Origin: Actinopolyspora halophila DSM 43834
GTDB taxonomy: Bacteria > Actinomycetota > Actinomycetes > Mycobacteriales > Pseudonocardiaceae
NCBI RefSeq assembly: GCF_000371785.1
Contig: NZ_AQUI01000002.1
Location: 3,451,276 to 3,515,275 of the forward strand
Length of the DNA: 64,000 bases
Reading direction: 5' to 3'
The notes under the pieces are model-generated. The model was not told the DNA's origin. It saw only the letters and a list, made by a program, of their open reading frames with translations, and made no database searches. Both the position numbers and the translations under genes were made by a program. This document shows, piece after piece, positions 8,256 through 31,190 of this stretch. Within the stretch, counting starts at the first letter, position 1; every line of letters begins with the position of its first letter.

Positions 8256-8343
8256 CTCCTCGCCTCCTTACTGCGAGCTTGCGCGCTTCATCTCCGCCGT
8301 CGCAGCAGCATTCAAACGCGTGATCCCCGTCACCAAAAGATGC

Positions 8344-9768: not shown

Positions 9769-9840
9769 CGACCGGTGTCCGTGCCGACGTCACAGCGTCG
9801 GCGCGGTGACCTCCGACCGCCGAGCAGAGAGGACACTCCC

Positions 9841-10881: not shown

Positions 10882-10970
10882 ACACCACTCCCAACCCGAA
10901 CACGGCGACCGGTGCCCCGTCCACGACACGCAGCGCCGGGAGGCGAACACCTGATGTCGAGGAGAGAACG

Positions 10971-12682: not shown

Positions 12683-12745
12683 CCACAGCTGTGGCCACGG
12701 CCTGGCTCCCGTTAGCCGGGACTGTCCTGATTTTTGTGTATAGCC

Positions 12746-12777
12746 TTTGCGCTCCCGGACACGGCCGGGAGCGCAAA
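12746..12777 (+). terminator. Strong hairpin after the gcoAB-mscR-MBL operon
   Basis: A perfect 13-bp stem (TTTGCGCTCCCGG / CCGGGAGCGCAAA) with a 6-base loop, about 60 bases past the last stop. There is no clear T-run, as is common for actinobacterial terminators. Confidence 0.7.
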
Positions 12778-12958
12778 ATACCGGTACAGGATTCCCCAGG
12801 TCGCGAGTCAGGTTCATAACGACGCGCTGACACGACACACCCGTACTTCGCGGCTCAGGTCAGCCTCAGGAGTACGGAGCCAGGTAGTAGTGACTCGGGT
12901 GTAGCTTTCGTCGACGTAGCACGGCAGCACCTGCCCAGGGCAAAGATCACCCCCGTCA

Positions 12959-13231
12959 GCCGGATTCGACCAATCCGACGACCCGGACGCCAGCGATGTG
13001 ATCCGCCGCTACACCAGCGAGCGACGCCGCTGGATCATCGCTGTGCAGATGGTCTCCGAGGGGGTCGACATCCTACGACTGTCCGTCGGCGTCTACGCCA
13101 GCCGCACCACCACTCCCTTGTTCCTCCGACAAGTCGCCGGGCGCTTCGTCCGCACCCGCGGTGACGACGACGAGACCTGCGCCGCTTTGTATGTGCCCTC
13201 GGTAGCCGCGTTGCTGAAAAAACGCCGCCGA
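12959..13231 (+). pseudogene. Fragment of a superfamily II (DEAD/DEAH) helicase
   Basis: About 90 codons match the C-terminal helicase motifs: MVSEGVDILRLSVGVYASRT corresponds to motif V and PLFLRQVAGRFVRTRG to motif VI. No motif I-III region exists upstream, and downstream the frame turns into unrelated sequence. It is a broken piece of a larger helicase gene, possibly from a plasmid or phage. Confidence 0.65.
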
Positions 13232-14840: not shown

Positions 14841-15030
14841 CTCGTCGTAACCGCTCGATCATCACCGTCGTGGTTCGGTGCCGCAGCCAGTTGTGGCATG
14901 TGATGAAAACAACTGTGACGTCCACAGACAACCACACCGCTTTATCGGGTAGCAACATGCGATTCACCCGATGACAACTCGCTGCCGGGTGGAGCCCCGT
15001 AGACGTTGTGTACGTGAGGAGAACAGAGTC

Positions 15031-16494: not shown

Positions 16495-16711
16495 CGCGGA
16501 ATCCCGGTCTTCCGTTTCCCGGGGATGTTCCCGGATGAGGAAGTCAGCCGGATCGTTGACCAAGACTGAGAGGCCAATCCTCGCCCGGCCACTCCCACCG
16601 CCAGCGACGCAGGAGAAAACCGCAGCGCAGACGGCCGGGAAAGCTGATCCATTGGCTGGGCTGGCCAAGCGCGTCCTGACCGCACGTCACCTGTCAGAAA
16701 GGAACCTGAAC

Positions 16712-17809
16712 ATGCGCACCACAGCAGCAGTAACCCGGAGCAAAGGGGCTCCGTTCGAACTGTGCGAAGTGCAACTGGACGACCCCCGCAACAACGAGAT
16801 CCTGGTACGGACCGTCGCGACGGGGATGTGCCACACCGACTTGATCGTCCGTGACCAGTGGTATCCGCCGGAGCTTCCCGCAGTGCTCGGACACGAAGGC
16901 TCCGGAGTGGTCGAGGCGGTGGGGTCGGAAATCGTCGGGATCAATCCCGGTGACCACGTGGTAGTAGGGTTCAATTCCTGTGGGCGTTGCCGCAACTGTC
17001 GACGCGGGATGCCAGCTTACTGCGAGGGTTTCGCACCGTACAACTTCGGGGGGCAGCGCCCGGACGGCTCCTCTCCGGTGCGGGACGGTGACGGGAACGA
17101 CATCAACGCCAACTTCTTCGGACAGTCCTCGTTCGCCCAGTATCTGTTGGCGACCGAACGCAACGTCGTCAAGGTCTCCGATGACGAACCACTGGAGTTG
17201 CTGGGGCCGCTGGGATGCGGAATCTCCACCGGGGCCGGCGGCATCCTGAACGCCCTCGATCCCGAGGCCGGGAGTTCGGTGACCGTCTTCGGAGCAGGGG
17301 CGGTTGGACTCAGCGCGGTGATGGCTTCGGTCGTGGCCAATGCCACCACCATCATCGCAGTCGACGTCGAACCCTCACGTCTGCAGCTGGCACAGGAACT
17401 CGGGGCCACGCACGTGCTCAACGGCCAGGAGGATGACGTGAGCAAGCGCATCATGGAGATCACTGGCAGTGGAAGCGACTACTGCGTCGACACGACCGCT
17501 AAGCCGACCGTGTTCCGGAACGCGGTGGAGTCGCTGAGCATGGGCGGCACGTGCGGCCTCATCGGAGCTGCGGCAGCCGGCACGGAAGTCAACTTGGACA
17601 TGTCGCACCTGCTGTTTGGACACAACATCAAGGGGATCCTCGAGGGGGACGCCGTTCCACAGAACTTCATCCCACGACTGATTGACCTGTACCGGCAAGG
17701 GCGGTTCCCATTCGACAAGCTGGTCAGCAAGTATTCCATCGCGGAGATCAACACGGCAGCTGCGGACTCGGCCAAGGGCAAGACCATCAAGCCCGTACTG
17801 GTTTTCTGA
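16712..17809 (+). CDS. Zinc-dependent aryl-alcohol dehydrogenase
   Basis: A 365-aa medium-chain dehydrogenase related to benzyl alcohol dehydrogenase (XylB). Catalytic zinc site: TGMCHTDLIVRDQ and VLGHEGSGVVEAV; structural zinc: CGRCRNCRRGMPAYC; NAD fold: VFGAGAVGLSAVMA. It interconverts aromatic alcohols and aldehydes, feeding the aldehyde dehydrogenase before it. A 217-base spacer separates the two genes, with AGAAAGGA before the ATG at 16712. With the aldehyde dehydrogenase it forms an alcohol-aldehyde-acid module beside the decayed decarboxylase genes. Confidence 0.88.
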   Translation: MRTTAAVTRSKGAPFELCEVQLDDPRNNEILVRTVATGMCHTDLIVRDQWYPPELPAVLGHEGSGVVEAVGSEIVGINPGDHVVVGFNSCGRCRNCRRGMPAYCEGFAPYNFGGQRPDGSSPVRDGDGNDINANFFGQSSFAQYLLATERNVVKVSDDEPLELLGPLGCGISTGAGGILNALDPEAGSSVTVFGAGAVGLSAVMASVVANATTIIAVDVEPSRLQLAQELGATHVLNGQEDDVSKRIMEITGSGSDYCVDTTAKPTVFRNAVESLSMGGTCGLIGAAAAGTEVNLDMSHLLFGHNIKGILEGDAVPQNFIPRLIDLYRQGRFPFDKLVSKYSIAEINTAAADSAKGKTIKPVLVF

Positions 17810-18077: not shown

Positions 18078-18323
18078 TCAACCCTTTCGCTCAGGCACCG
18101 CCGGCACGACGGGCATGCTGTCGATATCGGCGGGGTTGATTTTGAACTCGGGTGGATAGGTGGAGGCGGTGGTCGCCTGTGCCGGCTAGGTCGAACGCCA
18201 GGAGTACAGGCAGGTGGTGCAGGAAAACATCGTCCACGCCCCGGGGATTGGGGAGCGGGTCAGCACCCGGACGTCCGTGGCGTCGCAGCGGGGGCAGAGT
18301 TCAGGCAGTTCGTCGTCGGTCAC
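18078..18323 (-). pseudogene. vdcD: Hydroxyarylate decarboxylase subunit D with an in-frame stop
   Basis: The frame starts at a GTG that overlaps the subunit C stop (GTGA) and reads ELCPRCDATDVRVLTRSP, then IPGAWTMFSCTTCLYSWRST. It meets TAG at codon 46 (18186-18188) and then continues in the same frame as YPPEFKINPADIDSMPVVPA to a final TGA at 18078. The family protein (VdcD/BsdD, about 75-80 aa, two CxxC pairs) has Glu at this place, so a single GAG to TAG change explains it. The small zinc-ribbon subunit completes the non-oxidative decarboxylase. Confidence 0.8.
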
Positions 18324-19620
18324 TGGAACAGCTCCTTGATGATGTCCTCCCATTTCCTGGTCCCGTCGGGCTCGTCGACGGTTTGCGAGTAGTGGCCGCG
18401 GGTCTCGGGGCGATGGGCGTGGTGGCGTCGAGAACGACCTTGTCGGTGATGCCTGCCGGTTCCGAGCTCGGGTCGAGCGGCAGCACCGAGGCGTTGGGCA
18501 CTGTCACGATGTCGTGACGCGGGGGGAACTTGACCGACAGCGCCCACATCACCTGGGGCGAGGTTGAACGGGTCGACGGTCTCGTCGACGACGATGACCA
18601 CCTTGCAGTAGCCGAGCCCGTGCGGAGTGGGCATGGCACGCATCCCCACTCCTTTGGCGAAGCCACCGTAGCGTTGCTTGACCGAGACCACCGCGAGCAG
18701 ACCCTGCGTGTACATCGCGTTGACCGCCTGCACCTCGGGGAATTTCGCCTTAAGCTGCTGGTGCAGCGGAACGTTGGTGTTCAGGACCAGCGTGTAGTCC
18801 ATTTCGGTCCAGGGCATGCCGAGGTAGAGATGCTCGAAGATCGGGTCAGGCCGGTGGGACACCTTGTGGACCTTGATGACGGGTTGCTTGCGGCCGCCGG
18901 AGTAGTGGCCGGTGAACTCGCCGAACGGACCCTCGATCTCACGTTCCCCGGCGAGGATCTCGCCTTCGAGGACGACCTCGGAACCCCAGGGCACGTCCAT
19001 CCCCGTCAGCGACGTCTGCGCGATGCGGTAGGGGCTGCCCTGGAGGGCACCGGCCATCTCGTACTCGGACTGGTCGTAGGTCAGCGGCATCCCTCCCACG
19101 GTGGAGATCGCCGGTTCGTTGCTGACGGCGATGGTGACCGGGAGATTCCCCCCGCGTTCTGCGGCTCGTCGGGATCACAGCTGACCACGACGGCCTCGTC
19201 GATGTAGCAGCCGACGTCCCACCGATTCAGCCGGAACAGCGGCAGCAGGTGGAACAGGTCGATTCCCGCCTCAAGCACGTGTTCCTGCCACGGCGGGTCG
19301 TCACGGCGTTCGACCTCGACGGGATAGTCCTTCCAGCGCTTGGAGAACTCGAAGAGCTGTTCCTTGAACGGCGTGTCCTTCGACGACCCCAACATCAACG
19401 CGTGGTTGGGCCGCGAGCCGACGACGTTCAACGCCACCTCGCCGTGTTCGTAACCCTCGATGTCGTCGAACAGCAGCGCCGGACCGCGGTCGGTCAGGTT
19501 GGACACGGCACGCGCCGCCGCACCGAGGTCAGGCTCCGGTGCGACGGTCTCCGAGCACCGCAGCAACTGGCCGTTGTCCTCCAGCGTCGACAAGAACGCG
19601 CGCAGGTCCGAATAAGCCGT
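18320..19620 (-). pseudogene. vdcC: Broken UbiD-type hydroxyarylate decarboxylase subunit C
   Basis: UbiD-family signatures are spread over three frames: LLPLFRLNRWDVGCYIDEAV, PLTYDQSEYEMAGALQGSPY, EGPFGEFTGHYSGGRKQPVI, LYLGMPWTEMDYTLVLNTNV and AVNAMYTQGLLAVVSVKQRY. Lesions seen: loss of roughly 35-45 residues with a frame change at the C6 run 19148-19153; a +1 change in the G4 run 18555-18558 after DPFNLA; a compensating -1 change at 18407-18410. An intact protein would be about 470-490 aa, use prenylated FMN and release CO2 from vanillate or 4-hydroxybenzoate. It cannot be made here as written. Confidence 0.85.
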
Positions 19621-19622
19621 GA

Positions 19623-20220
19623 CTAATCCTCGATTCCTCCTGTACGAAAACGAGCGTCACACCGCTCGTCTGGGCCCCACGCCGCTCCACCGCCGTGCGG
19701 TGGGCAGCCTCGAGGCCGAACTGGTCCAGGGGCCGCGCGACGACGTGCTCGACGATGTCGGCAACGCTGGCGGGCCGGTTGTAGAACGCCGGTGTGGGTG
19801 GCAGCACGATCGCGCCCATCCTGGTCAGCTCGAGCATGTTCTCCAGATGGATCGCCGAAAGCGGCGTTTCCCGAGCGAGCAGCACCGGATGGCGCCGTTC
19901 CTTGAGAGTCACGTCCGCCGCGCGGGCGACCAGATCCTCGCCGTAACCGGACCGAATACCCGCCAACGTCTTCATGCTGCACGGCGCCACGGCCATGCCA
20001 TCGCACCGGACGGAACCGCTCCCCGATCATCGGGCCTGTACACGGTCGAGGCCATTTCGGTGACCTCGCCCACCGTGTACCCGGTCTCCTCCGTGATGGT
20101 CGCCCGCGCCCACCGGCTGACCACCAAGTCGGTCTCCACACCGAGATCACCCAACGCCTCCAGTAGGCGTATTCCAAGCACCGCTCCAGTGGCACCGGTC
20201 ATGGCGACGACGAGTCTCAC
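19623..20220 (-). pseudogene. vdcB: Broken UbiX-like flavin prenyltransferase (subunit B)
   Basis: The first frame, from a GTG at 20220 after GGGAGGATCC, reads RLVVAMTGATGAVLGIRLLE and VSRWARATITEETGYTVGEV. Near 19995-20010 it shifts to another frame that carries the rest: MAVAPCSMKTLAGIRSGYGE, LLARETPLSAIHLENMLELT and LPPTPAFYNRPASVADIVEH. The small segment before the DGM motif is also shortened. UbiX-type enzymes make the prenyl-FMN cofactor for the UbiD subunit. It leads the dead BCD operon and is divergent from a MarR gene that is also broken. Confidence 0.85.
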
Positions 20221-20876: not shown

Positions 20877-20962
20877 GATGTTCGGTCAGAAAAACCGTGC
20901 TCACGGTTGCCGCACCGACGACGTCTCCCGATTTCGAGGAAACATCGATCGATGGGAGCGAC

Positions 20963-21514
20963 TTACTGTGTGGGCTGACCGTACGGGGGGCACTCGCTCA
21001 GCCGCTGCCAGAACCGCAGCGCCGCGTACTCCATCTCGAGGCCGAGTTCGAGAGTGACCATGCGCGAGGCGATCTCGGGGTTACCACCGAAGCGCTGCTT
21101 CATCCCCTCGTACTCGGCGATGCGTTCCTCGTGCTGCTTGACCTGGTCGCGCGCGAGCCGCGCGATGTCCTCGGGATCGGCGAGCTCGTTGAAGAACAGC
21201 TTGATCTCGGCGATGTCGCGGAGCTCGAAGTGCTGGTGGGTGGGTTCGGCCAGCCAGGCCCGGAGAACTCCAAGCCCCTCGTCGGTGATCGTGAACGTCT
21301 TGCGGCGCCGTCCCGTCCCCTCCTCGCTCACCCTCAGCAAGCCGAGCTGTTCGAGACGTTTGGGTTCGGAGTACAGCTGCGCGTGGGGAAAGTGCCAGAA
21401 GTAGCCGACCGAGTGGCCGATAGCGCGTTTGAGGTCGTACGAGGTCGAGGGGCCTCGCATCGCGACCATCCCCAGGACGACGTACGAGGTCGTCGAAAAC
21501 CGAGCCGTTGACAC
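20963..21514 (-). CDS. PadR-family transcriptional regulator
   Basis: A 183-aa PadR protein with the winged helix at about residues 8-85 (TTSYVVLGMVAMRGPSTSYD, LKRAIGHSVGYFWHFPHAQL, YSEPKRLEQLGLL, GRRRKTFTITDEGLGVLRAW) and the C-terminal dimerisation helices (LFFNELADPEDIARLARDQV, a coiled-coil-like stretch). The GTG start at 21514 has only a weak ribosome site. It is divergent from the aryl-CoA operon, with a 21-bp perfect palindrome between them. PadR proteins are classic repressors of phenolic acid genes, so repression of the next operon and release by an aromatic acid or its CoA thioester is the simplest reading. Confidence 0.9.
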   Translation of the reverse strand: MSTARFSTTSYVVLGMVAMRGPSTSYDLKRAIGHSVGYFWHFPHAQLYSEPKRLEQLGLLRVSEEGTGRRRKTFTITDEGLGVLRAWLAEPTHQHFELRDIAEIKLFFNELADPEDIARLARDQVKQHEERIAEYEGMKQRFGGNPEIASRMVTLELGLEMEYAALRFWQRLSECPPYGQPTQ

Positions 21515-21539
21515 GCCCCAAAGCGTACCGTATTTTCCT

Positions 21540-21560
21540 TACCATCTGAAACAGATGGTA
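21540..21560. promoter_or_regulatory. 21-bp perfect palindrome, likely PadR operator
   Basis: TACCATCTG (21540-21548), spacer AAA, CAGATGGTA (21552-21560). It sits 25 bases from the padR start and 48 from the CoA ligase start, where a bound repressor would block both promoters. The half-site ACCAT recurs at about 21586. Confidence 0.75.
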
Positions 21561-21608
21561 TGTTACATATGGTCGTTTCCGTACCATTACTGCGGTGGAG
21601 GGACGGGT

Positions 21609-23189
21609 ATGGACCTCGGAACAGTGCTGAGATGGACCGCCGAGCGCTACCCCCGGCATCGCGCGGTCGGCGGAAAGTACCCCTTGACGTATGCCCAGTG
21701 GGACGCCCGCACCGACAGGCTGGCCCGCGCGCTGGCCGAGCTCGGCGTGCAGCCGGGCGACCGGGTCGCGTTCCTGCTGGCCGGGGGAGAACCGATGGCC
21801 AGCCTGCACCTTGCGGCGCAGAAACTCGGCGCCGTCTCAGTGCCGCTGTCGATCCGCTTCGGCCCGGAGGAACTGGCCTACTGCCTGCGTGATGCGGCAC
21901 CGGCTCTGATGGTCACCGATACCAGCACGACCGATACCGCCGAGGCGGCCCTGTCTGACGAGCGACCGTTGGCCCGCGCCCACGCCGGTGAGCCCGCCGA
22001 GGCACCGCCCGGTGTCCGTCCGATCGAGCGGGTGGCCGCAAATGAGCCCGGCGGTGCGCTGAGCACCCGGGTCGCGGAGGGCGACATCAGCGTGATGCTC
22101 TACACCTCAGGTACGACGGGCAAGCCCAAGGGCGTGCCGCGCACGCACTCGGCCGAGCACCAGGCGGCGGTGGCCCACCTGCTGCAGAGCAGGCAGGAAC
22201 CGTTCGCCACGACGCTGGGTGTGATGCCGATGTTTCACACGATGGGCCTGCGCAGCCTGCTGGCCAGTGTGATCAGCGCCGGAACCTGGGTGCCCCAGGT
22301 GCGGTTCTCCCCGGAGGAGGCCCTGGAGCTGATCATCAGGGAAGGTGTCTCGACGCTGTACCTCGTACCGACGATCTACTGGGGGCTGCTGCGGACCGGG
22401 CGTCTGGCAGAGGCGACGAGCGTGCGCAAGCTGGCTTACGCGGGCGCGTCGATGACACCGACCCTGGCCGAACAGCTCACCGCCGCACTCGCTCCCGAGG
22501 TGTTCATCAACCACTTCGGCAGCACGGAGATCTACACCTTCACCATCAGCCCGGACGTCGCGGCCAAACCCGGGTGCGCGGGCAGAGCCGGCGTCTTCAC
22601 CCGGGTCCGCCTGGTCGATCCGGAGCCGGGCGCGTCGCCCTCCGACGTCGTGGGGGAGGGCGAGCAGGGTCAGATCGCGATCTCGATGGACTCCCCGGAG
22701 GCGTTCGGCGGGTACTGGAACCGGCCCGATGCCGACGCGAAGTCCATTCGGGATGGCTGGTACTTCCCGGGGGACCTGGCCACGACCGACGAGGACGGGG
22801 ACCTGTGGGTGGCTGGCCGCGTGGACGACATGATCAATTCCGGGGGCGAGAACATCTACCCGGGCGAGATCGAAGACACCCTGGCCCGCTGCCCGGCGGT
22901 GGCCGACGTCGTGGTCGCCGGTCTTCCCGACGACCGCTGGGGTCAGGCCGCGACGGCCTTCTTCGTGCCAGCCCCCGGGATGACTCCGCAGCACGCGGCC
23001 ACAGTGCTGACGCATTTCGTACGCGAGCAGTCCGGGTTGCCGTCGCTGAAGCGGCCCAAGCGCCTGATCGCCGTCGAGCAGATTCCGAAATCAGCCGTCG
23101 GCAAGATCCTGCGCCGTGAACTGACCACGGGCAATTACGTACCACTGGCCGAGGTCCCGTCCGAGGCCATGACCCCTTCGCGCAGGTGA
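21609..23189 (+). CDS. Aromatic acid-CoA ligase (hydroxybenzoate-CoA ligase-like)
   Basis: A 526-aa AMP-forming ligase of the acyl-CoA synthetase superfamily. The P-loop-like A3 motif is YTSGTTGKPKGVPRTH; A5 is in INHFGSTEIY; A7-A8 are GWYFPGDLATTDEDGDLWVA and GRVDDMINSGGENIYPGEIE; the A10 Lys is in IPKSAVGKILRREL. Length and motifs fit benzoate, hydroxybenzoate or chlorobenzoate-CoA ligases rather than long-chain fatty acyl ligases. It would activate an aromatic acid to its CoA thioester for the downstream enzymes. The ATG at 21609 has GGAGGG upstream. It is the first gene of a seven-gene operon. Confidence 0.85.
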   Translation: MDLGTVLRWTAERYPRHRAVGGKYPLTYAQWDARTDRLARALAELGVQPGDRVAFLLAGGEPMASLHLAAQKLGAVSVPLSIRFGPEELAYCLRDAAPALMVTDTSTTDTAEAALSDERPLARAHAGEPAEAPPGVRPIERVAANEPGGALSTRVAEGDISVMLYTSGTTGKPKGVPRTHSAEHQAAVAHLLQSRQEPFATTLGVMPMFHTMGLRSLLASVISAGTWVPQVRFSPEEALELIIREGVSTLYLVPTIYWGLLRTGRLAEATSVRKLAYAGASMTPTLAEQLTAALAPEVFINHFGSTEIYTFTISPDVAAKPGCAGRAGVFTRVRLVDPEPGASPSDVVGEGEQGQIAISMDSPEAFGGYWNRPDADAKSIRDGWYFPGDLATTDEDGDLWVAGRVDDMINSGGENIYPGEIEDTLARCPAVADVVVAGLPDDRWGQAATAFFVPAPGMTPQHAATVLTHFVREQSGLPSLKRPKRLIAVEQIPKSAVGKILRRELTTGNYVPLAEVPSEAMTPSRR

Positions 23190-25660
23190 ATACCTTGACC
23201 GATCCGAGCAAACCTCCCACTGGCAATGACGGAGGGCGCGGGCAGCGTTCCACGGCGCGCGTGGAGGACCCGGCTCTGCTGTGCGGACGGGGCCGCTTTC
23301 TCGACGATCTCGATCCGTTGCCCGGAACCCTGACCGCGGCGATCGTGCGCAGCCCCCATCCGCACGCGAGGCTTCGTAGCGTGCACCTCGAGCGAGCGCG
23401 GGCGCATCCGGGTGTCGCTGCCGTCATCGGGCCCGAAGAGGTGACCGCGGCACTGCATCCGTTCCCGCTGTCGCTGAAGACACCGATGCCGTACTACCCG
23501 ACCGCGACGGACAAGACCCGGTTCGTCGGTGAGCCGGTGGCGGTGGTCGTGGCCAGCGATCGCTACGTCGCCGAGGACGCTACCGAGTTGGTAGAGATCG
23601 ACTACGAGCCGCTGCCGGCAGTGGTGGACACCGACAAGGCTCTCGACCCCGAAGCCCCCAAACTGCACGAGCAGGCCGAGGACAACGTCGCCACCGACCG
23701 GACGTTTCACTTCGGGCCCGTGGACGAGACGTTCGACCGCGCCGACCGGGTGGTCACCGCCGAGTACGAGTTTCCCCGCTACTCCTCTACGCCGATGGAG
23801 TGCTACTCGGTGGTCGCCGAGTGGCACGACGAAGTCGACGGACCCGCGATCACCGCGTGGGCGAACTTCCACGGCCCGTTCTCGATGGTGCCCGTGCTGG
23901 CCGGAGCACTGGGCGTTCCCACTTCGCGCGTGCGGCTGCACGTCCCGGCCGACAACGGCGGCAGCTTCGGCATCAAGGCCGGTATCTACCCGTACGTCGC
24001 GCTGCTGGCCCTGGCCAGCCAACATGCGGGACGGCCGGTGCGATGGACCGAGGACCGCATCGAGCACCTGCTGGCGAGCTCGGCCGGTTCGGACCGATCG
24101 ATGCGTTTCGAGGCAGCGATCTCCGACGACGGACGCATCGAGGCGTTGCGGACGGACCTCGTCGACAACGTGGGCGCTTACCTGCGTCCGCCCGAGCCCA
24201 GCACGCTGTATCGCTGCTTCGGCAACATCACGGGCGCCTACCGGATCGGCGCCGTACAGATCCGCTCCCGTGCCGTGGTCAGCAACAAGACACCGACCGG
24301 GCTCAACCGCGGATTCGGTGGACAGCAGCTCTACTTCGGTCTGGAACGGCTGATCGACACCATCGCCCACGACCGTGGCATCGACGCGGCGGAACTGCGC
24401 CGCCGCAACTTCGTGCAAGCCGACGAATTTCCCTACAGCACCCCGACCGGTGGCATCTACGACTCGGGGGACTACTCGCAGGCCTTCGAGAAAGTCCTCG
24501 AGAACGCCGACTACACCGCGCTGCGGCAGCGCCAACGGGAGGCGCGTGAGCGCGGCGAGTACTTCGGCATTGGAATGGCCAGCGTGGTGGATCCCTCCGC
24601 GACCAACATCGGCTACGTCGGTCTGGCCACCCCGGCCGAGAACCGGCCAGCCGGTCGCGGCAAGTCCGGTTCCACCGAGCACGTGCGGGTCAGCGTGGAC
24701 CTCAACGGCGTGGTCTCCGTTCTGCTCGGCACCGTGCCGCAGGGTCAAGGGCATGCCACGGTGGCTCAGCAGATCGTTGCCGAGCAGCTCGGCCTGCAGC
24801 GGGACCAGGTCCGCCCCGTGGTCGAGATGGACACCGCCACCACGCCGTGGACGGTCAGCTCCGGCAGCTACTCGTCGCGTTTCGCGCCGTTGCTCACCAG
24901 CGCCCTGGTGGAAGCCGCCGAACGACTAGCGGTCACAGTGCGGCTGGCCGGGGCGACGATGCTCGACGCGGATCCCGAGGAGTTGGAGCTCGCCGACGGA
25001 CGGGTCCGGGTTCGTGATGAGCCCGAGCGCGCCGTGGCGTTCCGCCACGCCGCCGGTCTGGTGCACTGGGATCCCGGCTCGTTGCCGGAAGGAGCGTCGG
25101 CCCGGCTCTACGAGGAGGCGGCGTTCACTCCGCCGGAGTCCAAGGCGGCCAACCAGAACGACCAGATCAACTCCAGCCTGTGCTACGGCTTCGTCGCCGA
25201 ACTCGTGGTGTGCCGCATCGATCCCGACACCCGCGAGATCACTCTCGAACACGTGTCCACCGTGCACGATCCCGGCACGATCCTGAACGAGACGCTCCTC
25301 GAAGGCCAGATCCACGGCGCGCTGGCGCATGCCATCGGGGGCGCGCTGTACGAGGAGATGCGCTACTCCGAGTCCGGCCAACCCACATCGGCGACGTTCA
25401 TGGACTACCTGTGCCCCACCGCGGCCGAAACCACCTACACGCTCGACAGCGACCACATGCAGACCCCGTCCCCGGTGACGCGGCTCGGCGCCAAGGGGTC
25501 CGGTGAGGGCAGCTCGATGAGTCTGCCGGTGGCCATCGCCAACGCGGTTTCGGACGCGCTCGCGCCCCACGGCATCGAGATCACCAGCCTGCCCCTGCAC
25601 GGCAACGTCATCCACCAGCTACTCACCGAGGAAATCCCGGCAACGGAAGGAACCCACTGA
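23186..25660 (+). CDS. Molybdenum hydroxylase large (molybdopterin) subunit
   Basis: An 824-aa xanthine oxidase-family subunit; the GTG start overlaps the ligase stop (GTGA). The N-terminal aldehyde-oxidase a/b hammerhead domain (about residues 25-150, RFVGEPVAVVVASDRYVAED) is followed by the two Mo-cofactor domains. Active-site landmarks are NRGFGGQQLYFGLERL and, near the C-terminus, the Glu of GAKGSGEGSSMSLP. The CO dehydrogenase signature VAYRCSFR is absent, so this is not a true CoxL. With the next FAD and Fe-S genes it forms a complete three-subunit enzyme that adds water-derived oxygen to, or reductively removes hydroxyl from, an aromatic CoA thioester; which one is not settled. Confidence 0.88.
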   Translation: MNTLTDPSKPPTGNDGGRGQRSTARVEDPALLCGRGRFLDDLDPLPGTLTAAIVRSPHPHARLRSVHLERARAHPGVAAVIGPEEVTAALHPFPLSLKTPMPYYPTATDKTRFVGEPVAVVVASDRYVAEDATELVEIDYEPLPAVVDTDKALDPEAPKLHEQAEDNVATDRTFHFGPVDETFDRADRVVTAEYEFPRYSSTPMECYSVVAEWHDEVDGPAITAWANFHGPFSMVPVLAGALGVPTSRVRLHVPADNGGSFGIKAGIYPYVALLALASQHAGRPVRWTEDRIEHLLASSAGSDRSMRFEAAISDDGRIEALRTDLVDNVGAYLRPPEPSTLYRCFGNITGAYRIGAVQIRSRAVVSNKTPTGLNRGFGGQQLYFGLERLIDTIAHDRGIDAAELRRRNFVQADEFPYSTPTGGIYDSGDYSQAFEKVLENADYTALRQRQREARERGEYFGIGMASVVDPSATNIGYVGLATPAENRPAGRGKSGSTEHVRVSVDLNGVVSVLLGTVPQGQGHATVAQQIVAEQLGLQRDQVRPVVEMDTATTPWTVSSGSYSSRFAPLLTSALVEAAERLAVTVRLAGATMLDADPEELELADGRVRVRDEPERAVAFRHAAGLVHWDPGSLPEGASARLYEEAAFTPPESKAANQNDQINSSLCYGFVAELVVCRIDPDTREITLEHVSTVHDPGTILNETLLEGQIHGALAHAIGGALYEEMRYSESGQPTSATFMDYLCPTAAETTYTLDSDHMQTPSPVTRLGAKGSGEGSSMSLPVAIANAVSDALAPHGIEITSLPLHGNVIHQLLTEEIPATEGTH

Positions 25661-25662
25661 TC

Positions 25663-26442
25663 ATGGCACTCACCGGAGGCGAAATCCGGCTCGACCGCGG
25701 CCACGAGGGGCGAGTGGCCTACCTGACCCTCGATCACGGCAAGTACAACGTCATCACCTGGGAAACCCGCAACGTGATGGCCGACCGGTTCGCCGAGATC
25801 GACGCCGACGACACCGTCCAGCTCGTGGTCATTCGCGGCGAGGGCGAGCACTTCTCGTCCGGGGGTGACATCGCCGGGTTCATGGAGGTCGAACCGGTCG
25901 ACTTCACCGACCTCGGACACCACGTCACGGCCCCGGCCCGCAGCCCCAAACCGGTGATCACCGCCGTGGACGGTTACTGCTTCGGCGTCGGTTTCGAACT
26001 CGCCCTGTCCTCGGACATCCGGCTGGCCACCACACGCAGCCAGTTCGCCCTGCCCGAGATGAACCTCGGAATGATCCCCGGGTCCGGCGGTACCCAGCGG
26101 CTGGCCCGGCTGATCGGACTCTCGCGAGCCAAGTACCACGTACTCACCGCCGAACGCATCAACGCCGAGCAGGCCGGCGACTGGGGCCTGCTGGCAGGCG
26201 TCACCGAGGACCGCGCCGCCCTGGACGGCGAGGTCGAACGCCTCGTGGCCAAGATGCTCGGCTTCTCGCCGCTGGCGGCGCGTACCGCCAAGGAAGTGCT
26301 CGACCGCGGTGCTGACGGCCCGCTGTACACCGGCATCGAGCTGGAGCGCAAGGCCTACTCGATGCTGCGGGCCAGCCACGACTTCGCCGAGGGCGTCGCG
26401 GCGTTCAACGACAAGCGCACCCCGAAGTTCCGGGGGCGGTGA
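25663..26442 (+). CDS. Enoyl-CoA hydratase/isomerase family protein
   Basis: A 259-aa crotonase-fold protein. Oxyanion-hole segments are HFSSGGDIAGFM and DGYCFGVGFELALSSDIRL, and the region LPEMNLGMIPGSGGTQRLAR carries one expected acidic residue. The position of the second catalytic Glu of hydratases appears to hold Tyr (SRAKYHVLTAERI), so simple hydration is not certain; isomerase, hydrolase or ring-modifying roles are known in this fold. It lies inside the operon, between the molybdenum subunit and the FAD subunit, which suggests action on the same aryl-CoA intermediate. Confidence 0.85.
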   Translation: MALTGGEIRLDRGHEGRVAYLTLDHGKYNVITWETRNVMADRFAEIDADDTVQLVVIRGEGEHFSSGGDIAGFMEVEPVDFTDLGHHVTAPARSPKPVITAVDGYCFGVGFELALSSDIRLATTRSQFALPEMNLGMIPGSGGTQRLARLIGLSRAKYHVLTAERINAEQAGDWGLLAGVTEDRAALDGEVERLVAKMLGFSPLAARTAKEVLDRGADGPLYTGIELERKAYSMLRASHDFAEGVAAFNDKRTPKFRGR

Positions 26443-26448
26443 GAGTCG

Positions 26449-27357
26449 ATGAAAGCCGCCCCCTTCGCCTACGTACGTCCCACCAGCCTCGAGGACGCCG
26501 TGAACGAACTCGCCGGCAGTGACGGCGGCGGGAAGGTCCTCGCCGGAGGGCAGTCATTGGTGCCCGTCCTGGCGATGCGGCTGGCCCGGCCCGAGAAGCT
26601 GGTGGACATCACCACGGTAGAAGGACTCGACCAACTCCGGAGCACCGGTGACTCGCTCGAGGTCGCGGCGATGGTCCGGCAACGACGAGTGGAACACGAC
26701 CGGGCGACCGATTCGGTGCCGTTGTTGCGCATGGCCCTGCCGTGGGTGGGGCATCGGGAGCTGCGCAGTCGCGGGACCGTGTGCGGCAGCCTCGCGCACG
26801 CCGATCCGGCTGCTGAGATCCCTGCTGTGGCGGCCTGCCTGAACGCCCGGATCACGTTGACCAGTCCACGCGGTACGCGCCAGGTATCGGCTCGGGAGTT
26901 CTTCACCGGTGCCATGACCACGGCTCTCGGTTCCGAGGACATCCTCACCGCCATCCGGTTTCCCGTCGCGGCCGAGGGCGAGGGCTTCGGGTTCGCCGAG
27001 ATCGCCCGCCGGCACGGGGACTTCGCTCTGGCAGGTGTTGCCGTGCGGGTCGCGGTGTCCGGCGAGCATGTCCACGAGGCGACGCTCACGGCGTTCGGAG
27101 TCTCCGACCGTCCGGTCACCCGCGACGTTAGTACCGAGCTCGCTTCGGCTGTCAGCGCGTCCGGACAGGACGGTGCTCGGCTGGCCGTGCGGCTGACCGA
27201 ACCCTTGGCCGGTATCGCACAGGACATGGTCGACACCGACGGCGACGCGCACGGTTCCCAGGACTACCGGCGCCGGCTGCTCGCGACGTTGTCCGGCCGG
27301 GAACTGGCCAAGGCCCACGACCGTGCCCTCCGGGGTACCAGCGGGGGAAGTTCATGA
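26449..27357 (+). CDS. Molybdenum hydroxylase FAD subunit (CoxM-like)
   Basis: A 302-aa FAD-binding protein of the CO dehydrogenase flavoprotein family. The FAD loop GKVLAGGQSLVPVLAMRLAR and the second motif RGTVCGSLAHADPAAEIPA are clear. Only two Cys residues are present, so the extra [4Fe-4S] cluster of 4-hydroxybenzoyl-CoA reductase beta subunits is missing. That favours an oxidative hydroxylase over the anaerobic reductive enzyme. It starts 6 bases after the hydratase gene and overlaps the Fe-S gene by ATGA. Confidence 0.9.
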   Translation: MKAAPFAYVRPTSLEDAVNELAGSDGGGKVLAGGQSLVPVLAMRLARPEKLVDITTVEGLDQLRSTGDSLEVAAMVRQRRVEHDRATDSVPLLRMALPWVGHRELRSRGTVCGSLAHADPAAEIPAVAACLNARITLTSPRGTRQVSAREFFTGAMTTALGSEDILTAIRFPVAAEGEGFGFAEIARRHGDFALAGVAVRVAVSGEHVHEATLTAFGVSDRPVTRDVSTELASAVSASGQDGARLAVRLTEPLAGIAQDMVDTDGDAHGSQDYRRRLLATLSGRELAKAHDRALRGTSGGSS

Positions 27358-28664
27358 CCACCAACGAAACCACCCACGACACCGCGCGGTCGGCGGACCG
27401 CCGGGAAAACCGCCCCAGGCCGGTGAGTGCGGGCGCTGATGAACCGGTGAAGGTCCGGCTGAGCGTCAACGGCACCCCGGCCGTGCTGCAGTTGCCACCC
27501 CGGCACACCCTGGCGGACGCACTGCGCGATCATCTCGGCCTCACAGGAACCCACCTGGGCTGCGAGCACGGCGTGTGCGGCATGTGCACGGTAATGGTCG
27601 ACGGGGAGGCCGCGCGTGCCTGCCTGCTGTTCGCCTGCCAGCTCGACGGATCCGACGTGGTCACCGTCGAGGGCTTGGGACGTCCGGACGACCTGCACCC
27701 GTTGCAGGAGTCCTTCGGACACCACCACGCACTGCAGTGCGGGTTCTGCACGCCGGGCTTCCTGATGAGCTCCTACGACCTGCTCTCGCACAAGCCGGGC
27801 ATCGCCGAGGAGAAAATCCCGGAGGAACTCTCCGGCGTGATCTGCCGGTGCACGGGCTACCGCAACATCGTCTCGGCCGTGGCCGAGACGAGTCGTGAAC
27901 ACCCCGAAGGGGTTCCTGCACCCGGCAACTGTGCCCACCGCGCACTCGTCGGCCGTTCGGGTGGACAGGCGGCCGGCTTGCCGGGCGGTGCTGAGGAAAT
28001 CTCTGACACGCAACGAGCCAATGCCACCTCCCAGGATGTGGAGATCGTGCTGCCGGACTCCGATCCGACAGTATCCGTCGAGGTCACCACGGATCTGGAC
28101 GTGCCGTTCGAGAAAGTGTGGCGCGTCCTCGACGACGTCCACCTGCTCGCGACCTGCCTGCCCGGCGCCGAACTCACCGACGACCTCGGCAACGAGCACT
28201 ACACCGGACGCGCCCGCGTCGCGGTGGGACCGATCAAGCTCTCGTTCACCGGCGTCGCGCACATCACCGAGCACGACCGAGAATCCGGAAGAATCCGGGT
28301 GCTCGCCCAAGGCGAGGACACCGGCGGTGCGCAGACACAGGCCGACCTCACTCTGGTCGCCGAGTCCACCGAGACCGGCACGCGGCTGCAGGCCGACGCC
28401 GCCGTGTACCTCACCGGCCGGATCGCCCAATTCGGGCGGGCACTCGCCGGCGACATCAGCCGCCGCATGTTCGAGCAGTTCGCCGACTCCGTGAAGCAGG
28501 CGGCCACCTCCGGCCAAGCACCGACCACCCCTGCGGGAGCGCCGAGCGCCTTGCGCCTGGTCGCCAGCACCCTCGCCAACCGGATCCGTCGGACGCTGCG
28601 TCGCATCGGCCTCGGGAAAGGGAACTCCCCCCGCAGTGGGACACCGACGGACGACTTCCGCTGA
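27354..28664 (+). CDS. [2Fe-2S] subunit fused to a CoxG (SRPBCC) domain
   Basis: A 436-aa two-part protein. Residues about 35-185 are the small Fe-S subunit with two [2Fe-2S] clusters: ligands in LGCEHGVCGMCTVMVDGEAA, then CGFCTPGFLMSSYD and ICRCTGYRNIV. After a linker of about 45 residues, residues 235-380 are a CoxG/SRPBCC domain (DVPFEKVWRVLDDVHLLATC, LPGAEL, HYTGRARVAVGPIKLSFTGV), and a basic tail ends the protein. CoxS and CoxG are normally separate proteins; CoxG helps recruit or mature CO dehydrogenase at the membrane. The fusion would tie electron transfer to this function in the aryl-CoA enzyme. Confidence 0.88.
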   Translation: MTTNETTHDTARSADRRENRPRPVSAGADEPVKVRLSVNGTPAVLQLPPRHTLADALRDHLGLTGTHLGCEHGVCGMCTVMVDGEAARACLLFACQLDGSDVVTVEGLGRPDDLHPLQESFGHHHALQCGFCTPGFLMSSYDLLSHKPGIAEEKIPEELSGVICRCTGYRNIVSAVAETSREHPEGVPAPGNCAHRALVGRSGGQAAGLPGGAEEISDTQRANATSQDVEIVLPDSDPTVSVEVTTDLDVPFEKVWRVLDDVHLLATCLPGAELTDDLGNEHYTGRARVAVGPIKLSFTGVAHITEHDRESGRIRVLAQGEDTGGAQTQADLTLVAESTETGTRLQADAAVYLTGRIAQFGRALAGDISRRMFEQFADSVKQAATSGQAPTTPAGAPSALRLVASTLANRIRRTLRRIGLGKGNSPRSGTPTDDFR

Positions 28665-28743
28665 GCGGGGTGAGGAACGGGGTGTACGCGCGAGGACCGC
28701 GACGCACACCGGTGGGCCGAAAACCGACTCAAGGAGCACATCG

Positions 28744-30021
28744 ATGAACAGCTCTCCTCCGGTAGCGCCCCCACGTGCCGGCACAGACGATCGACTCGTC
28801 GAACGGGGGCCGGGGATACGCAGCGGCTTGCGGGACCTGCCCGCGCACCTGAATCTCTCCACGGTGGGCGCGGCCGTGGTCGCTACCGTGTTCGGCTGTA
28901 CCGGACCCGCGCTGATCATCATCAACGGAGCGGGAGACGCGGGGCTCTCGGCCTCCCAGACCGCCTCCTGGATCTTCGGGGTCTACGTATTCGGCGGTCT
29001 GAACTCCCTGCTGCTCGCGCTCTACTACAAGCAACCCATAGCAGGAGCGTGGAGTATCCCCGGTGCGGTGCTCGTAGTGGATGCGCTCGGCACCTTCACC
29101 TTGGGAGAGCTCGTCGGGGCGTACCTGGTGAGCGGCGCCTTGGTGCTCCTGCTCGCACTGACCGGAGTGCTCCGCCGGGTGATGACCTGGTTGCCTGGTC
29201 CCATCATCATGGCCATGATCGCCGGCGCGCTCGTCGAGTTTGCGATCGGTGTCGTCGAGACGGGGCGCGCCGCCCCCTGGATCGTGGCCTCCGCGCTGGC
29301 CGGCTACCTGCTCGTGACGCGATTCAGCAAGAAGATCCCGGGCGTCGTTGGTGCGCTCGTGGCCAGCGTGGTGGCCGCCGGATTGACGGGTGCGTTCGTG
29401 GGAATCGACCCGGACACCCGGCTCGCCGTGCCGGCACTTGTCGTGCCCACGTTCGACTGGGGAGCGGTCTTGGCCGTCTCCGTACCGTTGACCGTGCTTA
29501 TCATCGGGGCCGAGAACGCGCAGGCGACCGGAGCGCTGATGGCCGCGAGCTACCGTCCACCGATCAACTCCATGTCGTTGCTCAGCGGCCTCAGCGGACT
29601 GGCCGCGGCCGGGTTCGGGGGGCACACGGCCAACATCGCAGGTCCTATGACCGCCATCTGCACATCCCGCGATGCCGGCCCCGAGACGGGGCGTTACGCG
29701 GCGGCCGTGCTCAACGGGATCCTGTTCATCGCCTTCGGGGTGGTTTCGAGCGTTGCCGTCGCGTTCGTCACCGCGCTCCCGGTCGAACTCGTCACCTCCG
29801 TTGCCGGCTTGGCGATGATCACGGTCCTGCTGTCGTCCTTCCAAGGTGCTTTCGGTAGCTCCCGATTCCAGATCGGGGCGTTCTTCGCGCTCGTCATCGC
29901 CATGAGCGGAGTCAGCATCGCGGGTATATCCAGCCCTTTCTGGGCTCTGCTCGGCGGTGTGACGGCGTCCCTGCTGCTCGAATTCGACCAGTTCAGGGAT
30001 CGCGCCGATCACTCCGACTGA
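28744..30021 (+). CDS. BenE-type benzoate/H+ symporter
   Basis: A 425-aa membrane protein of the BenE family, with about 12 hydrophobic segments from residue 35 to the C-terminus (for example STVGAAVVATVFGCTGPALI, LNSLLLALYYKQPIAGAWSI, VLIIGAENAQATGALMAASY, GHTANIAGPMTAICTSRDAG). The conserved family motif around the polar pair in TASWIFGVY and the KQPI loop is present. The ATG at 28744 has AAGGAGC upstream. In this operon it would import the aromatic acid that the ligase activates, which argues for a benzoate-like growth substrate from outside the cell. Confidence 0.88.
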   Translation: MNSSPPVAPPRAGTDDRLVERGPGIRSGLRDLPAHLNLSTVGAAVVATVFGCTGPALIIINGAGDAGLSASQTASWIFGVYVFGGLNSLLLALYYKQPIAGAWSIPGAVLVVDALGTFTLGELVGAYLVSGALVLLLALTGVLRRVMTWLPGPIIMAMIAGALVEFAIGVVETGRAAPWIVASALAGYLLVTRFSKKIPGVVGALVASVVAAGLTGAFVGIDPDTRLAVPALVVPTFDWGAVLAVSVPLTVLIIGAENAQATGALMAASYRPPINSMSLLSGLSGLAAAGFGGHTANIAGPMTAICTSRDAGPETGRYAAAVLNGILFIAFGVVSSVAVAFVTALPVELVTSVAGLAMITVLLSSFQGAFGSSRFQIGAFFALVIAMSGVSIAGISSPFWALLGGVTASLLLEFDQFRDRADHSD

Positions 30022-30063
30022 GCGGCGCGGGAACGGTTTTTCCGAACAGTCAGAGGAGATCGG

Positions 30064-30522
30064 ATGTCTGCGGTCGATGAGGACGGTGCGGTGCACGGCA
30101 GCGCCGCCGATCAGCTCAGGGAGGCGCTGTCCGGAACGGAGCAGCTCGTCGTCCGGATGGGTCTGGAGATCACGGCGTGGAACCCAGATCACCTGGTCGG
30201 CACCCTGCCGGTGGCAGGTAACCGCCAGCCCTACGGGTTGCTGCACGGTGGGGCGAACGCGGTCCTGGCCGAGACGCTCGGCTCGATCGCCGCGGCGCTG
30301 CACACCGGGGCGAGTCGGCAAGCCCTGGGCGTGGATCTGTCCTGCACGCACCATAGGTCGCCCACCGGCCAGCGGGTGACCGGGACCGCGACACCGCTGC
30401 ACCGGGGACGCAACCTCGCCACCTACGAGATCACGATCAACGATGACGACGGAAACCGCACGTGCACCGCACGACTGACCTGCGTGCTCCGAGAACACCC
30501 CTCCCACCCCCTCCCCTCGTGA
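30064..30522 (+). CDS. Hotdog-fold thioesterase
   Basis: A 152-aa PaaI/YdiI-type thioesterase with the signature YGLLHGGANAVLAETLGSIA, holding the catalytic acid in the hotdog helix, and the strand HHRSPTGQRVTGTATPLHRG. It ends the aryl-CoA operon (42 bases after the transporter, AGAGGAG before the ATG) and would release CoA from a stalled or final aryl-CoA product. The pairing ligase-oxygenase-thioesterase resembles gentisyl-CoA routes of salicylate use in actinobacteria, where a different oxygenase is used. Confidence 0.88.
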   Translation: MSAVDEDGAVHGSAADQLREALSGTEQLVVRMGLEITAWNPDHLVGTLPVAGNRQPYGLLHGGANAVLAETLGSIAAALHTGASRQALGVDLSCTHHRSPTGQRVTGTATPLHRGRNLATYEITINDDDGNRTCTARLTCVLREHPSHPLPS

Positions 30523-30699
30523 GAAACGCGTTCGATGTAGTGCCATCAATGGGCAGGAGGCAAGACGGTGTCGACGAGGGCGATGGGGGCGGCGTAGATG
30601 GCGAGAATCGACCCACCGGCGTGTAGTTGCTCTCCGACAAACAATTGCGGCCGTGTGTGCTGAGTTTTTGTGAGGTTCCCCCGTTGGCCGGACGGTTAG

Positions 30700-31190
30700 T
30701 TATGCTGCCATGGGTTGTGGGTGGTCATGGTGGGCTTCCCAGTGCTCGGGGCTGGCGTAGTCCAGAGCGGAGTGCAGTCCTGGCGGTTGCACCGGGTCCG
30801 GGTCCAGGTGAAAACGACCTCGCGTGCCTGGGCTCGGGCGGTGAAGCGGTGTCGGTGCACGAGTTTTCGTTTCAACGCTCCGAAAAACGACTCCACGACC
30901 GCGTTGCCCCCACAGATCCCGGTGCGCCCCAGCAAATGCCGGATGCCCAGCTTGGCGCAGCGCTGGGCCAACTGGGTGCTGGTGCATTGGCATCCTCGGT
31001 CGCTGTGAAAGATCACTCCGGCCACGACGCTGCCCCGGAAGCCGACAGCGCTGTTTAGGCAGTCGGTGCTCAGCTCAGTGCTCAGACGCTCGGCCAACGC
31101 GTAGCCCAGCCCCAGCGTGATCCCACGTCGGCACGACGGCTGGATGTTGCGATACATGAGGACCTTGCTTCTCCCTATCCTCATAGCGAG
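30700..31190 (-). pseudogene. IS3-family transposase, C-terminal fragment
   Basis: The rve integrase core is recognisable: ALAERLSTELSTDCLNSAVG, IFHSDRGCQCTSTQLAQRCA and the Glu helix GNAVVESFFGALKRKLVHRH. The tail LHSALDYASPEHWEAHH lies in another frame, so there is at least one frameshift near 30790. The N-terminal half is separated (see the fragment at 31680-31870) by an integrase piece. It is not functional. Confidence 0.8.

What the first reader, a model, noticed from the sequence alone, without database searches (positions are those of the whole stretch)
21540..30522. Seven-gene aryl-CoA operon built around a molybdenum hydroxylase: candidate undescribed aerobic aromatic pathway
One PadR-controlled operon encodes an aromatic acid importer, an aryl-CoA ligase, a complete three-subunit xanthine oxidase-family enzyme, a crotonase-fold protein and a thioesterase. 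Known aerobic aryl-CoA routes use flavin or diiron oxygenases (salicylyl-CoA hydroxylase, BoxB, PaaABCE). The 4-hydroxybenzoyl-CoA reductase of anaerobes has an extra [4Fe-4S] cluster in its FAD subunit, but this FAD subunit has only two Cys. A water-dependent aryl-CoA hydroxylation (or an oxidative variant) followed by CoA release is therefore plausible. Seen: gene order, overlaps and motifs. Inferred: substrate and reaction.
Basis: partly seen in the sequence, partly recalled or inferred. Interest (0 to 1): 0.88.

Follow-up and report, generated by a model that had tools for sequence, protein, structure and literature searches.

The report
Actinobacterial furoic-acid (hmf) degradation operon
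This is very probably an actinobacterial version of a known bacterial operon that breaks down the plant-biomass acid 2-furoic acid, with an unusual twist: its molybdenum enzyme carries a built-in domain like a membrane quinone carrier, on a different subunit from its proteobacterial relatives.

Summary
The operon is real: divergent PadR, then ligase, Mo large subunit, crotonase, FAD subunit, [2Fe-2S] subunit, BenE, hotdog thioesterase. An undescribed aryl-CoA pathway is not supported. The genes match the known 2-furoate pathway (hmfABCDE; furoyl-CoA dehydrogenase is a molybdenum enzyme). The large subunit sits in one clade with those of Cupriavidus, Dinoroseobacter and Geobacillus hmf-type clusters; hydroxybenzoyl-CoA reductase, CO and quinoline enzymes fall outside. 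Some actinobacterial relatives carry HmfF-type UbiD, UbiX and HmfT-type transporters beside it. What looks new is the CoxG pattern: 65 of 70 assessed clade members have CoxG, fused to the small subunit in 22 of 22 of the main actinobacterial clade, to the large subunit in 39 of 43 of the mainly proteobacterial subclade, separate in 4 others; a single furoyl-specific CoxG origin is rejected when CODH-type CoxGs of both phyla are included (AU p 0.0002-0.0013). CoxG is a menaquinone carrier for Mo-CO dehydrogenase, so electron exit to the quinone pool is the best testable guess. The operon moved horizontally between genera. No biochemistry was possible.

The parts
20963..21514 (-). PadR-family regulator, divergent
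   Evidence: PF03551 E 7.1e-10 and PF10400; present beside the operon in 20 of 22 actinobacterial loci (in L020 on the same strand as the operon)
21508..21536 (+). sigma-70-like promoter TTGACA-17-TATTTT
   Evidence: only promoter-like site in 20900-30800 on either strand, mean 0.5 (sd 0.9) in shuffles; consensus match only
21541..21559 (.). perfect dyad ACCATCTG-AAA-CAGATGGT, candidate PadR operator
   Evidence: related 19-mers in the same intergenic region of most relatives; window 17 of 19 matches, 0 of 300 shuffles as good. Consensus was taken from these same regions, so partly circular
21609..23189 (+). HmfD-type acyl-CoA synthetase (2-furoate--CoA ligase, inferred)
   Evidence: PF00501/PF13193; 43-46% to ligases of hmf-type clusters; grouped with them
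23186..25660 (+). HmfA-type molybdopterin large subunit of furoyl-CoA dehydrogenase
   Evidence: PF02738/PF20256/PF01315; 46-48% to HmfA-type of Geobacillus, Dinoroseobacter, Cupriavidus; tree
25663..26442 (+). HmfE-type crotonase-fold protein (lactone opening and/or 2-oxoglutaryl-CoA hydrolysis, inferred)
   Evidence: PF00378; 46-48% to the hmf-cluster crotonases
26449..27357 (+). HmfB-type FAD subunit, no HBCR-like extra Cys
   Evidence: PF00941/PF03450; 35-40%; Cys at 112 and 130 only
27354..28664 (+). HmfC-type [2Fe-2S] subunit (aa ~30-182) fused to a CoxG/SRPBCC domain (aa ~240-390)
   Evidence: PF00111/PF01799/PF06240; CoxG domain matches M. smegmatis CoxG 8UDS E 7.6e-21 and by fold E 1.7e-11
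28744..30021 (+). BenE-family importer (furoate uptake, inferred)
   Evidence: PF03594 E 1e-74; BenE at 49-59% in 15 further loci besides the near-copy L033
30064..30522 (+). hotdog (4HBT) thioesterase, accessory CoA-releasing enzyme (inferred)
   Evidence: PF03061 E 1.1e-14; found only in L033 among L001-L098 at E 1e-4

Best explanation
It is the lower (2-furoate) branch of furfural/HMF catabolism in an actinobacterial form. BenE imports 2-furoate (inferred); the ligase makes 2-furoyl-CoA (inferred from HmfD kinship); the three-subunit molybdenum enzyme hydroxylates C5 of the furan ring with oxygen from water to 5-hydroxy-2-furoyl-CoA (inferred from HmfABC kinship); the product tautomerises to an enol-lactone, which is opened to 2-oxoglutaryl-CoA and hydrolysed to 2-oxoglutarate by the crotonase-fold protein, helped in this lineage by the hotdog thioesterase (inferred, least sure step). 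Electrons go Mo to two [2Fe-2S] to FAD; the CoxG domain fused to the [2Fe-2S] subunit then most likely docks the enzyme at the membrane and carries menaquinone to the FAD, putting the electrons into the respiratory chain (inferred from CoxG of Mo-CO dehydrogenase). PadR probably represses the operon from a dyad just downstream of the -10 until a pathway compound is present (inferred). The operon was exchanged between two genera of one family (shown by sequence; direction unknown).
For: Large subunit: 73-row clade (SH-aLRT 96) holds the window's actinobacterial clade (24 rows, 100) with hmf-type clusters of Cupriavidus, Dinoroseobacter, Geobacillus and Bradyrhizobium; HBCR, CoxL of A. carboxidovorans pHCG3 and quinoline oxidoreductase lie outside a 77-row branch with support 100. 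Same five-enzyme set in those clusters, with UbiD/UbiX in the stretch in Dinoroseobacter and C. necator pENH92, where a GMC oxidoreductase (family of HmfH, recalled) also lies. Actinobacterial loci: UbiD 60-61% identical to the Dinoroseobacter one in 4 of 22, UbiX in 5 of 22, HmfT-type MFS over 300 bits in 10 of 22; these UbiDs group with hmf-cluster UbiDs (97/98). Among the 80 loci, BenE (16) and HmfT-type MFS over 300 bits (20) never occur together (44 show neither in the stretch), as expected of interchangeable importers; benE beside hmfABCDE is also reported in PMC6678421 (passages). CoxG: 65 of 70. HGT: operon block 96.3% nt to Halosaccharopolyspora lacisalsi with unlike flanks, rpoB-containing stretch 87.7%.
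Against: No sequence with an experimentally proven furoyl-CoA activity was in hand: the C. basilensis HMF14 and Pseudomonas proteins were not among the fetched records, so the anchor is relatives with the same cluster plus published descriptions. The actinobacterial clade has a long stem (0.49) and its sister group is unresolved (forks of 37 and 52), so a shifted substrate is possible. This genome has no HmfF-type UbiD (best 30%), so the upper pathway was not found, and the UbiD evidence comes from 4 of 22 relatives only. Five of 70 clade members have no detected CoxG at the locus. In Sulfolobus a CoxG protein only anchors glycerol-3-phosphate dehydrogenase and is not needed for quinone reduction (PMC11962113, passages). 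No membrane-spanning tail was found here, and the amphipathy of the C-terminal helix did not exceed shuffles (p 0.05) in 8 of 10 tails.
Confidence: 0.83

Rival explanations
1. The same chemistry on a different heteroaryl acid (for example thiophene-2-carboxylate, a pyridine or a substituted furan acid), the actinobacterial clade having shifted substrate.
For: Long stem branch 0.49 of the actinobacterial clade; no HmfF-type decarboxylase in this genome; some large-subunit relatives (L072, L077) show no hmf-type ligase in the stretch seen, so the wider clade may not be uniform.
Against: Ligase, crotonase, BenE or HmfT-type transporter and, in 4 of 22 loci, HmfF-type UbiD recur with the actinobacterial enzymes.
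Confidence: 0.1
2. One reading: a new aerobic benzoyl- or hydroxybenzoyl-CoA hydroxylation pathway.
For: BenE is named for benzoate, and decayed hydroxyarylic acid decarboxylase (VdcC-type) genes lie next door.
Against: Large subunit is not near HBCR (NCBIfam 366.8 of 994.55); BenE-type genes sit beside hmf-type operons in other phyla; the VdcC-type genes are broken and lie outside the block shared with Halosaccharopolyspora.
Confidence: 0.04
3. On the CoxG domain only: it is a passive membrane anchor or an assembly/maturation aid, not a quinone carrier.
For: Sulfolobus CoxG-like proteins recruit G3PDH to the membrane while quinone reduction works without them; [quoted passage not shown]
Against: Best sequence and fold match is M. 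smegmatis CoxG 8UDS; PMC13240472 (passages) cites CoxG as a menaquinone-binding protein carrying electrons from CODH to the quinone pool.
Confidence: 0.35

Closest known systems
hmfABCDE / 2-furoyl-CoA dehydrogenase operon (Cupriavidus basilensis HMF14; Pseudomonas; described in PMC6678421 and PMC12064950)
   Same: Same five enzyme types (HmfA-E), benE reported beside it in P. pseudoalcaligenes; some relatives carry UbiD/UbiX and HmfT-type MFS
   Different: Order ligase-A-E-B-C instead of A-B-C-D-E; PadR instead of AraC/LysR; CoxG fused to the small subunit instead of the large one; extra hotdog thioesterase
Mo-Cu CO dehydrogenase with CoxG (8UDS/8UEM M. smegmatis; pHCG3 of Afipia carboxidovorans)
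   Same: XO-family three-subunit enzyme with a CoxG partner; the CoxG domain here is on the same side of the CoxG tree as M. smegmatis CoxG
   Different: Large subunit outside the CoxL part of the tree; loop reads GLNRGFGG, without the Cu-binding Cys motif (motif recalled); CoxG fused, not separate
3-hydroxypyridine dehydrogenase with a CoxG homologue (Ensifer adhaerens HP1; seen only as cited in PMC11962113)
   Same: By that citation, a dehydrogenase other than CODH with a proposed CoxG membrane anchor: a precedent for the idea (XO-family membership recalled)
   Different: Different substrate; its sequence was not compared here
4-hydroxybenzoyl-CoA reductase (1RM6)
   Same: XO-family enzyme acting on an aryl-CoA
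   Different: Outside the clade; FAD subunit here has two Cys only, so no extra [4Fe-4S] site
PDB 2PCS, 'conserved protein' of Geobacillus kaustophilus
   Same: It is the stand-alone CoxG gene product of the plasmid pHTA426 furoyl-type cluster (E 5.1e-98)
   Different: Separate protein, on the other side of the CoxG tree

Membership tests
hmf (2-furoate) lower-pathway operon | HmfA, B, C, D and E homologues in one operon | tested here: met
   35-54% identity to each counterpart in three hmf-type clusters
hmf (2-furoate) lower-pathway operon | Large subunit in one clade with hmf-cluster large subunits, apart from CODH, HBCR, quinoline enzymes | tested here: met
   73-row clade, SH-aLRT 96; HBCR, CoxL, QorL outside
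hmf (2-furoate) lower-pathway operon | Linked upper-pathway genes (HmfF-type UbiD, UbiX, HmfT) | tested here: inconclusive
   met in some relatives (UbiD 4 of 22, UbiX 5 of 22, MFS 10 of 22); HmfF-type UbiD not in this genome
hmf (2-furoate) lower-pathway operon | Growth on 2-furoate; 2-furoyl-CoA oxidised to 5-hydroxy-2-furoyl-CoA | not testable with these tools
   needs wet work
4-hydroxybenzoyl-CoA reductase | NCBIfam equivalog cut-off for the alpha subunit | tested here: not met
   366.8 bits against 994.55
4-hydroxybenzoyl-CoA reductase | Extra [4Fe-4S] cluster in the FAD subunit | tested here: not met
   two Cys only
Mo-Cu CO dehydrogenase | NCBIfam equivalog cut-off for CoxL | tested here: not met
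   462.9 of 991.15; pHCG3 CoxL scores 1620.5
CoxG family (domain of the small subunit) | Over Pfam PF06240 gathering score | tested here: met
   52.1 bits against 22.2
CoxG family (domain of the small subunit) | Binds menaquinone and couples to the membrane | not testable with these tools
   fold match only

The most novel reading that the evidence does not exclude
2-Furoyl-CoA dehydrogenase is a respiratory enzyme that hands its electrons to the membrane quinone pool through a built-in CoxG quinone shuttle, and this coupling was assembled at least twice independently: once by fusing a CoxG to the large subunit in Proteobacteria and once by fusing a locally derived, CODH-type actinobacterial CoxG to the [2Fe-2S] subunit. 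The operon in this window is the second kind, and has moved between genera.
Probability: 0.5. Interest if true: 0.6.

Novelty: new variant of a known kind. Interest (0 to 1): 0.42.

Why it matters
It removes a supposed new benzoyl-CoA pathway and turns it into a precise prediction: the Saccharopolyspora, Amycolatopsis, Streptomyces, Nocardioides and other strains that carry the operon should use 2-furoate, an acid formed from the furan aldehydes of processed plant biomass. The recurrent, differently placed and apparently separately acquired CoxG module offers a direct, testable answer to where furoyl-CoA dehydrogenase puts its electrons, and gives the orphan structure 2PCS a functional context.

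Tried and rejected
Rejected: CO dehydrogenase, HBCR and xanthine dehydrogenase identities. Benzoyl-CoA route: no support beyond the name BenE and the decayed neighbours. The UbiD/UbiX pieces beside PadR as the HmfF of this operon: the UbiD pieces are VdcC-type, broken, and outside the transferred block. Haloarchaeal origin of benE-hotdog: BenE is 49% but the haloarchaeal PaaI gave no match to the hotdog protein at E 1e-3. Membrane-binding C-terminal helix: predicted helix 399-418 has low confidence and its hydrophobic moment beat shuffles at p 0.05 in 2 of 10 tails only, so not claimed. The [2Fe-2S] half of the predicted structure is poor (whole-model mean pLDDT 59.0) and was not used.

Rows dropped. 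Large-subunit tree: L005, L006, L008, L013, L014 (duplicates or fragments), L010 (stop in frame), own paralogues other than L002 and L108, and hits under 1500 bases (L073 and one in L029). Alignment A2: L036 (stop in the chosen stretch), L024 and L033 (near-copies). CoxG trees: 71 rows; six long rows (L066, L070, L071, L079, L090, L117) and 12 near-duplicates taken out for (53 rows; 56 rows) had L117 back and L122, L123 added; (55 rows) had L117 and L123 out and L126 in. The group tested was named after the first tree was seen, so the p values are optimistic. In one search, with only four actinobacterial CoxGs as comparison, the furoyl-type CoxGs were already one side of a branch (94/76), so one origin was not rejected there; adding the proteobacterial CoxGs L115 and L122 (and the haloarchaeal L123) to the comparison group made it rejected. 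'CODH-type' is a label: only 8UDS and pHCG3 belong to named CO dehydrogenases; L099, L122, L123 and L025_17417 lie beside other XO-family enzymes and L025_2375 beside none that I saw.

Papers: Koopman 2010 and Donoso 2021 are not held (35 was a wrong DOI), seen only as citations; Kropp 2025 on CoxG seen only as cited in PMC13240472. A search for CoxG with furoyl found two papers: in PMC8941161 (passages) the two terms are unrelated; PMC12104242 was seen in the listing only. No claim that the CoxG-furoyl link or actinobacterial hmf operons are not in print is made beyond these nine searches of an open-licence library.

Full report
What is there. Window 20963-30522 holds a divergent PadR gene and seven co-directional genes: acyl-CoA ligase, molybdopterin large subunit, crotonase, FAD subunit, [2Fe-2S] subunit, BenE and a 4HBT hotdog protein.

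Which pathway. The closest described system is the 2-furoate operon hmfABCDE: HmfD makes 2-furoyl-CoA, the molybdenum enzyme HmfABC hydroxylates it, HmfE is the proposed 2-oxoglutaroyl-CoA hydrolase; in P. pseudoalcaligenes benE lies beside it (PMC6678421, passages; gene table in PMC12064950, passages). Geobacillus kaustophilus pHTA426, Dinoroseobacter shibae pDSHI01, Cupriavidus pinatubonensis p2 and C. necator pENH92 have large subunit, FAD, [2Fe-2S], ligase and crotonase in a row (in Geobacillus with a CoxG gene behind the large subunit); in the stretches fetched a UbiD lies upstream in Geobacillus, UbiD and UbiX in Dinoroseobacter and C. necator, the last also with a GMC oxidoreductase; none in C. 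pinatubonensis. Window proteins are 46-48% (large), 43-46% (ligase), 46-48% (crotonase), 35-40% (FAD) and 53-54% ([2Fe-2S]) identical to the first three of these.

Phylogeny. In a tree of 101 large subunits the window lies in a 24-row actinobacterial clade (SH-aLRT 100) inside a 73-row clade (96) with all four of these; HBCR (1rm6), pHCG3 CoxL and quinoline oxidoreductase (1t3q) lie outside a 77-row branch supported at 100 (quick method, no bootstrap, several long branches). Forks between the actinobacterial, Bacillota and proteobacterial parts are weak (37, 52). Ligases of hmf-type clusters, actinobacterial ones included, group together with the second ligases of Bacillota and haloarchaeal clusters against seven other, distant ligases in the loci (a weak control). 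The UbiDs found beside four actinobacterial operons (L016, L017, L018, L027) group with hmf-cluster UbiDs (97/98; one long-branched row from elsewhere, L080, also falls there).

Gene context in Actinobacteria. Of 22 actinobacterial loci (L016-L036, L073), PadR is beside the operon in 20 (L021 and L022 are cut in the ligase), HmfF-type UbiD over 490 bits is in 4, UbiX over 200 bits in 5, HmfT-type MFS over 300 bits in 10, BenE in 2, hotdog in 1. Among the 80 loci, BenE occurs in 16 and HmfT-type MFS (over 300 bits) in 20, never both; 44 show neither in the stretch held. The family is sparse: at E 1e-150 the large subunit was found in 7 of 61 relatives (own genome counted; 2 of the 10 in the genus) and in 6 of 296 genomes drawn from the phylum (own counted, where only the three best candidates per genome were scored, and one of the six, G176 at 39%, lies outside the 77-row branch).

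The CoxG module. With an HMM built from six CoxG sequences, 65 of 70 assessed members of the 73-row clade have CoxG at the locus (L007, L009 and L012 not assessed): 22 of 22 in the actinobacterial clade fused to the [2Fe-2S] subunit; 39 of 43 in the mainly proteobacterial subclade fused to the large subunit (in one, L070, the same open frame runs on into the FAD subunit; these are stop-to-stop frames); 3 of 4 Bacillota rows as a separate gene; and, in the one of two other actinobacterial rows that was assessed, a separate gene directly behind the [2Fe-2S] gene (L126), the arrangement that a fusion would start from. None was detected in L041, L053, L067, L069, L094; L067 is a short contig, and L053 has a gap of about 530 bases behind the large-subunit match where the others carry the domain, so some may be missed. 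The window's CoxG domain matches M. smegmatis CoxG 8UDS by sequence (E 7.6e-21) and fold (E 1.7e-11, TM by target 0.83; that domain is predicted at pLDDT about 60-96 per ten residues, most of the rest poorly); the second fold match, 2PCS, is the Geobacillus cluster's own CoxG.

One recruitment or two. In the CoxG trees the small-subunit-fused domains fall on one side with actinobacterial CODH-type CoxGs and the large-subunit-fused ones on the other with Bacillota and proteobacterial CODH-type CoxGs. Holding all furoyl-type CoxGs together against CODH-type ones is rejected: p 0.0005 and 0.0013, 0.0002. Cautions: short domain, long branches, group named after the first tree, few CODH-type CoxGs (7 and 6, only two of them from named CO dehydrogenases), with only actinobacterial CoxGs for comparison, did not reject. 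Domain replacement rather than separate gain would give the same picture. Function is inferred: CoxG is cited as the menaquinone-binding carrier between CODH and the quinone pool (PMC13240472, passages), but in Sulfolobus a CoxG-like protein only anchors its enzyme, and an anchoring CoxG has been proposed for a 3-hydroxypyridine dehydrogenase (PMC11962113, passages). No membrane tail was demonstrated here.

Regulation. The only sigma-70-like match in 20900-30800 is TTGACA-17-TATTTT at 21508-21536, and a perfect dyad ACCATCTGAAACAGATGGT lies at 21541-21559. Of 20 intergenic regions compared, 14 (the window among them) hold a 19-mer closer to the consensus than any of 300 shuffles; in the other six, 1 to 26 of 300 shuffles did as well. 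The consensus was read from the same regions, and no effector or binding was tested.

Mobility. The block 21007-30593 is 96.3% identical to Halosaccharopolyspora lacisalsi (L033) while its flanks are not alike save a second short match at 84.7% just downstream; an rpoB-containing control stretch of 4.2 kb is 87.7% identical (one control only). The congener G002 shares the surroundings from 3746 to 43103 with gaps, within the 40 kb fetched. So the operon passed between genera, direction unknown.

Verdict. Observation confirmed; interpretation partly supported: right type of chemistry, but a known pathway. New variant of a known kind, the CoxG fusion being the part worth testing.

Noticed in passing
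window 18320-20217, - strand: Decayed hydroxyarylic acid decarboxylase genes next to PadR: VdcC-type UbiD split over two frames and UbiX-like fragments. The region is syntenic in the congener G002.
   Followed up: partly
window 13887-17809: AraC-family regulator divergent to an aldehyde dehydrogenase and a zinc alcohol dehydrogenase (best NCBIfam match, below cut-off: NDMA-dependent type); could be an alcohol-to-acid route, link to furfural not shown.
   Followed up: partly
L117 (Halorussus vallis plasmid) 2487-13219: Haloarchaeal furoyl-type cluster: SRPBCC, BenE, DUF6282 protein, PaaI thioesterase, ligase, three Mo subunits, second ligase, without an annotated crotonase in the stretch seen; its large subunit falls outside the 73-row clade but inside the 77-row branch.
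   Followed up: partly
L096 10427-10885 (pHTA426): The orphan structure 2PCS is the CoxG of this plasmid cluster, which also carries modB, moaA and XdhC genes.
   Followed up: yes
L072, L077 (and L076): A subclade of alphaproteobacterial MAGs has the HmfA-CoxG fusion and FAD and FeS subunits but no hmf-type ligase directly beside them (L076 has two distant ligases upstream on the other strand); substrate may differ.
   Followed up: no
L010 1501-3894 (unnamed relative G013): The large-subunit match in this relative contains one TGA.
   Followed up: no
L126 13083-13796, - strand: Stand-alone CoxG behind the [2Fe-2S] gene, with a C-terminal hydrophobic stretch, in a separate actinobacterial lineage.
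   Followed up: partly
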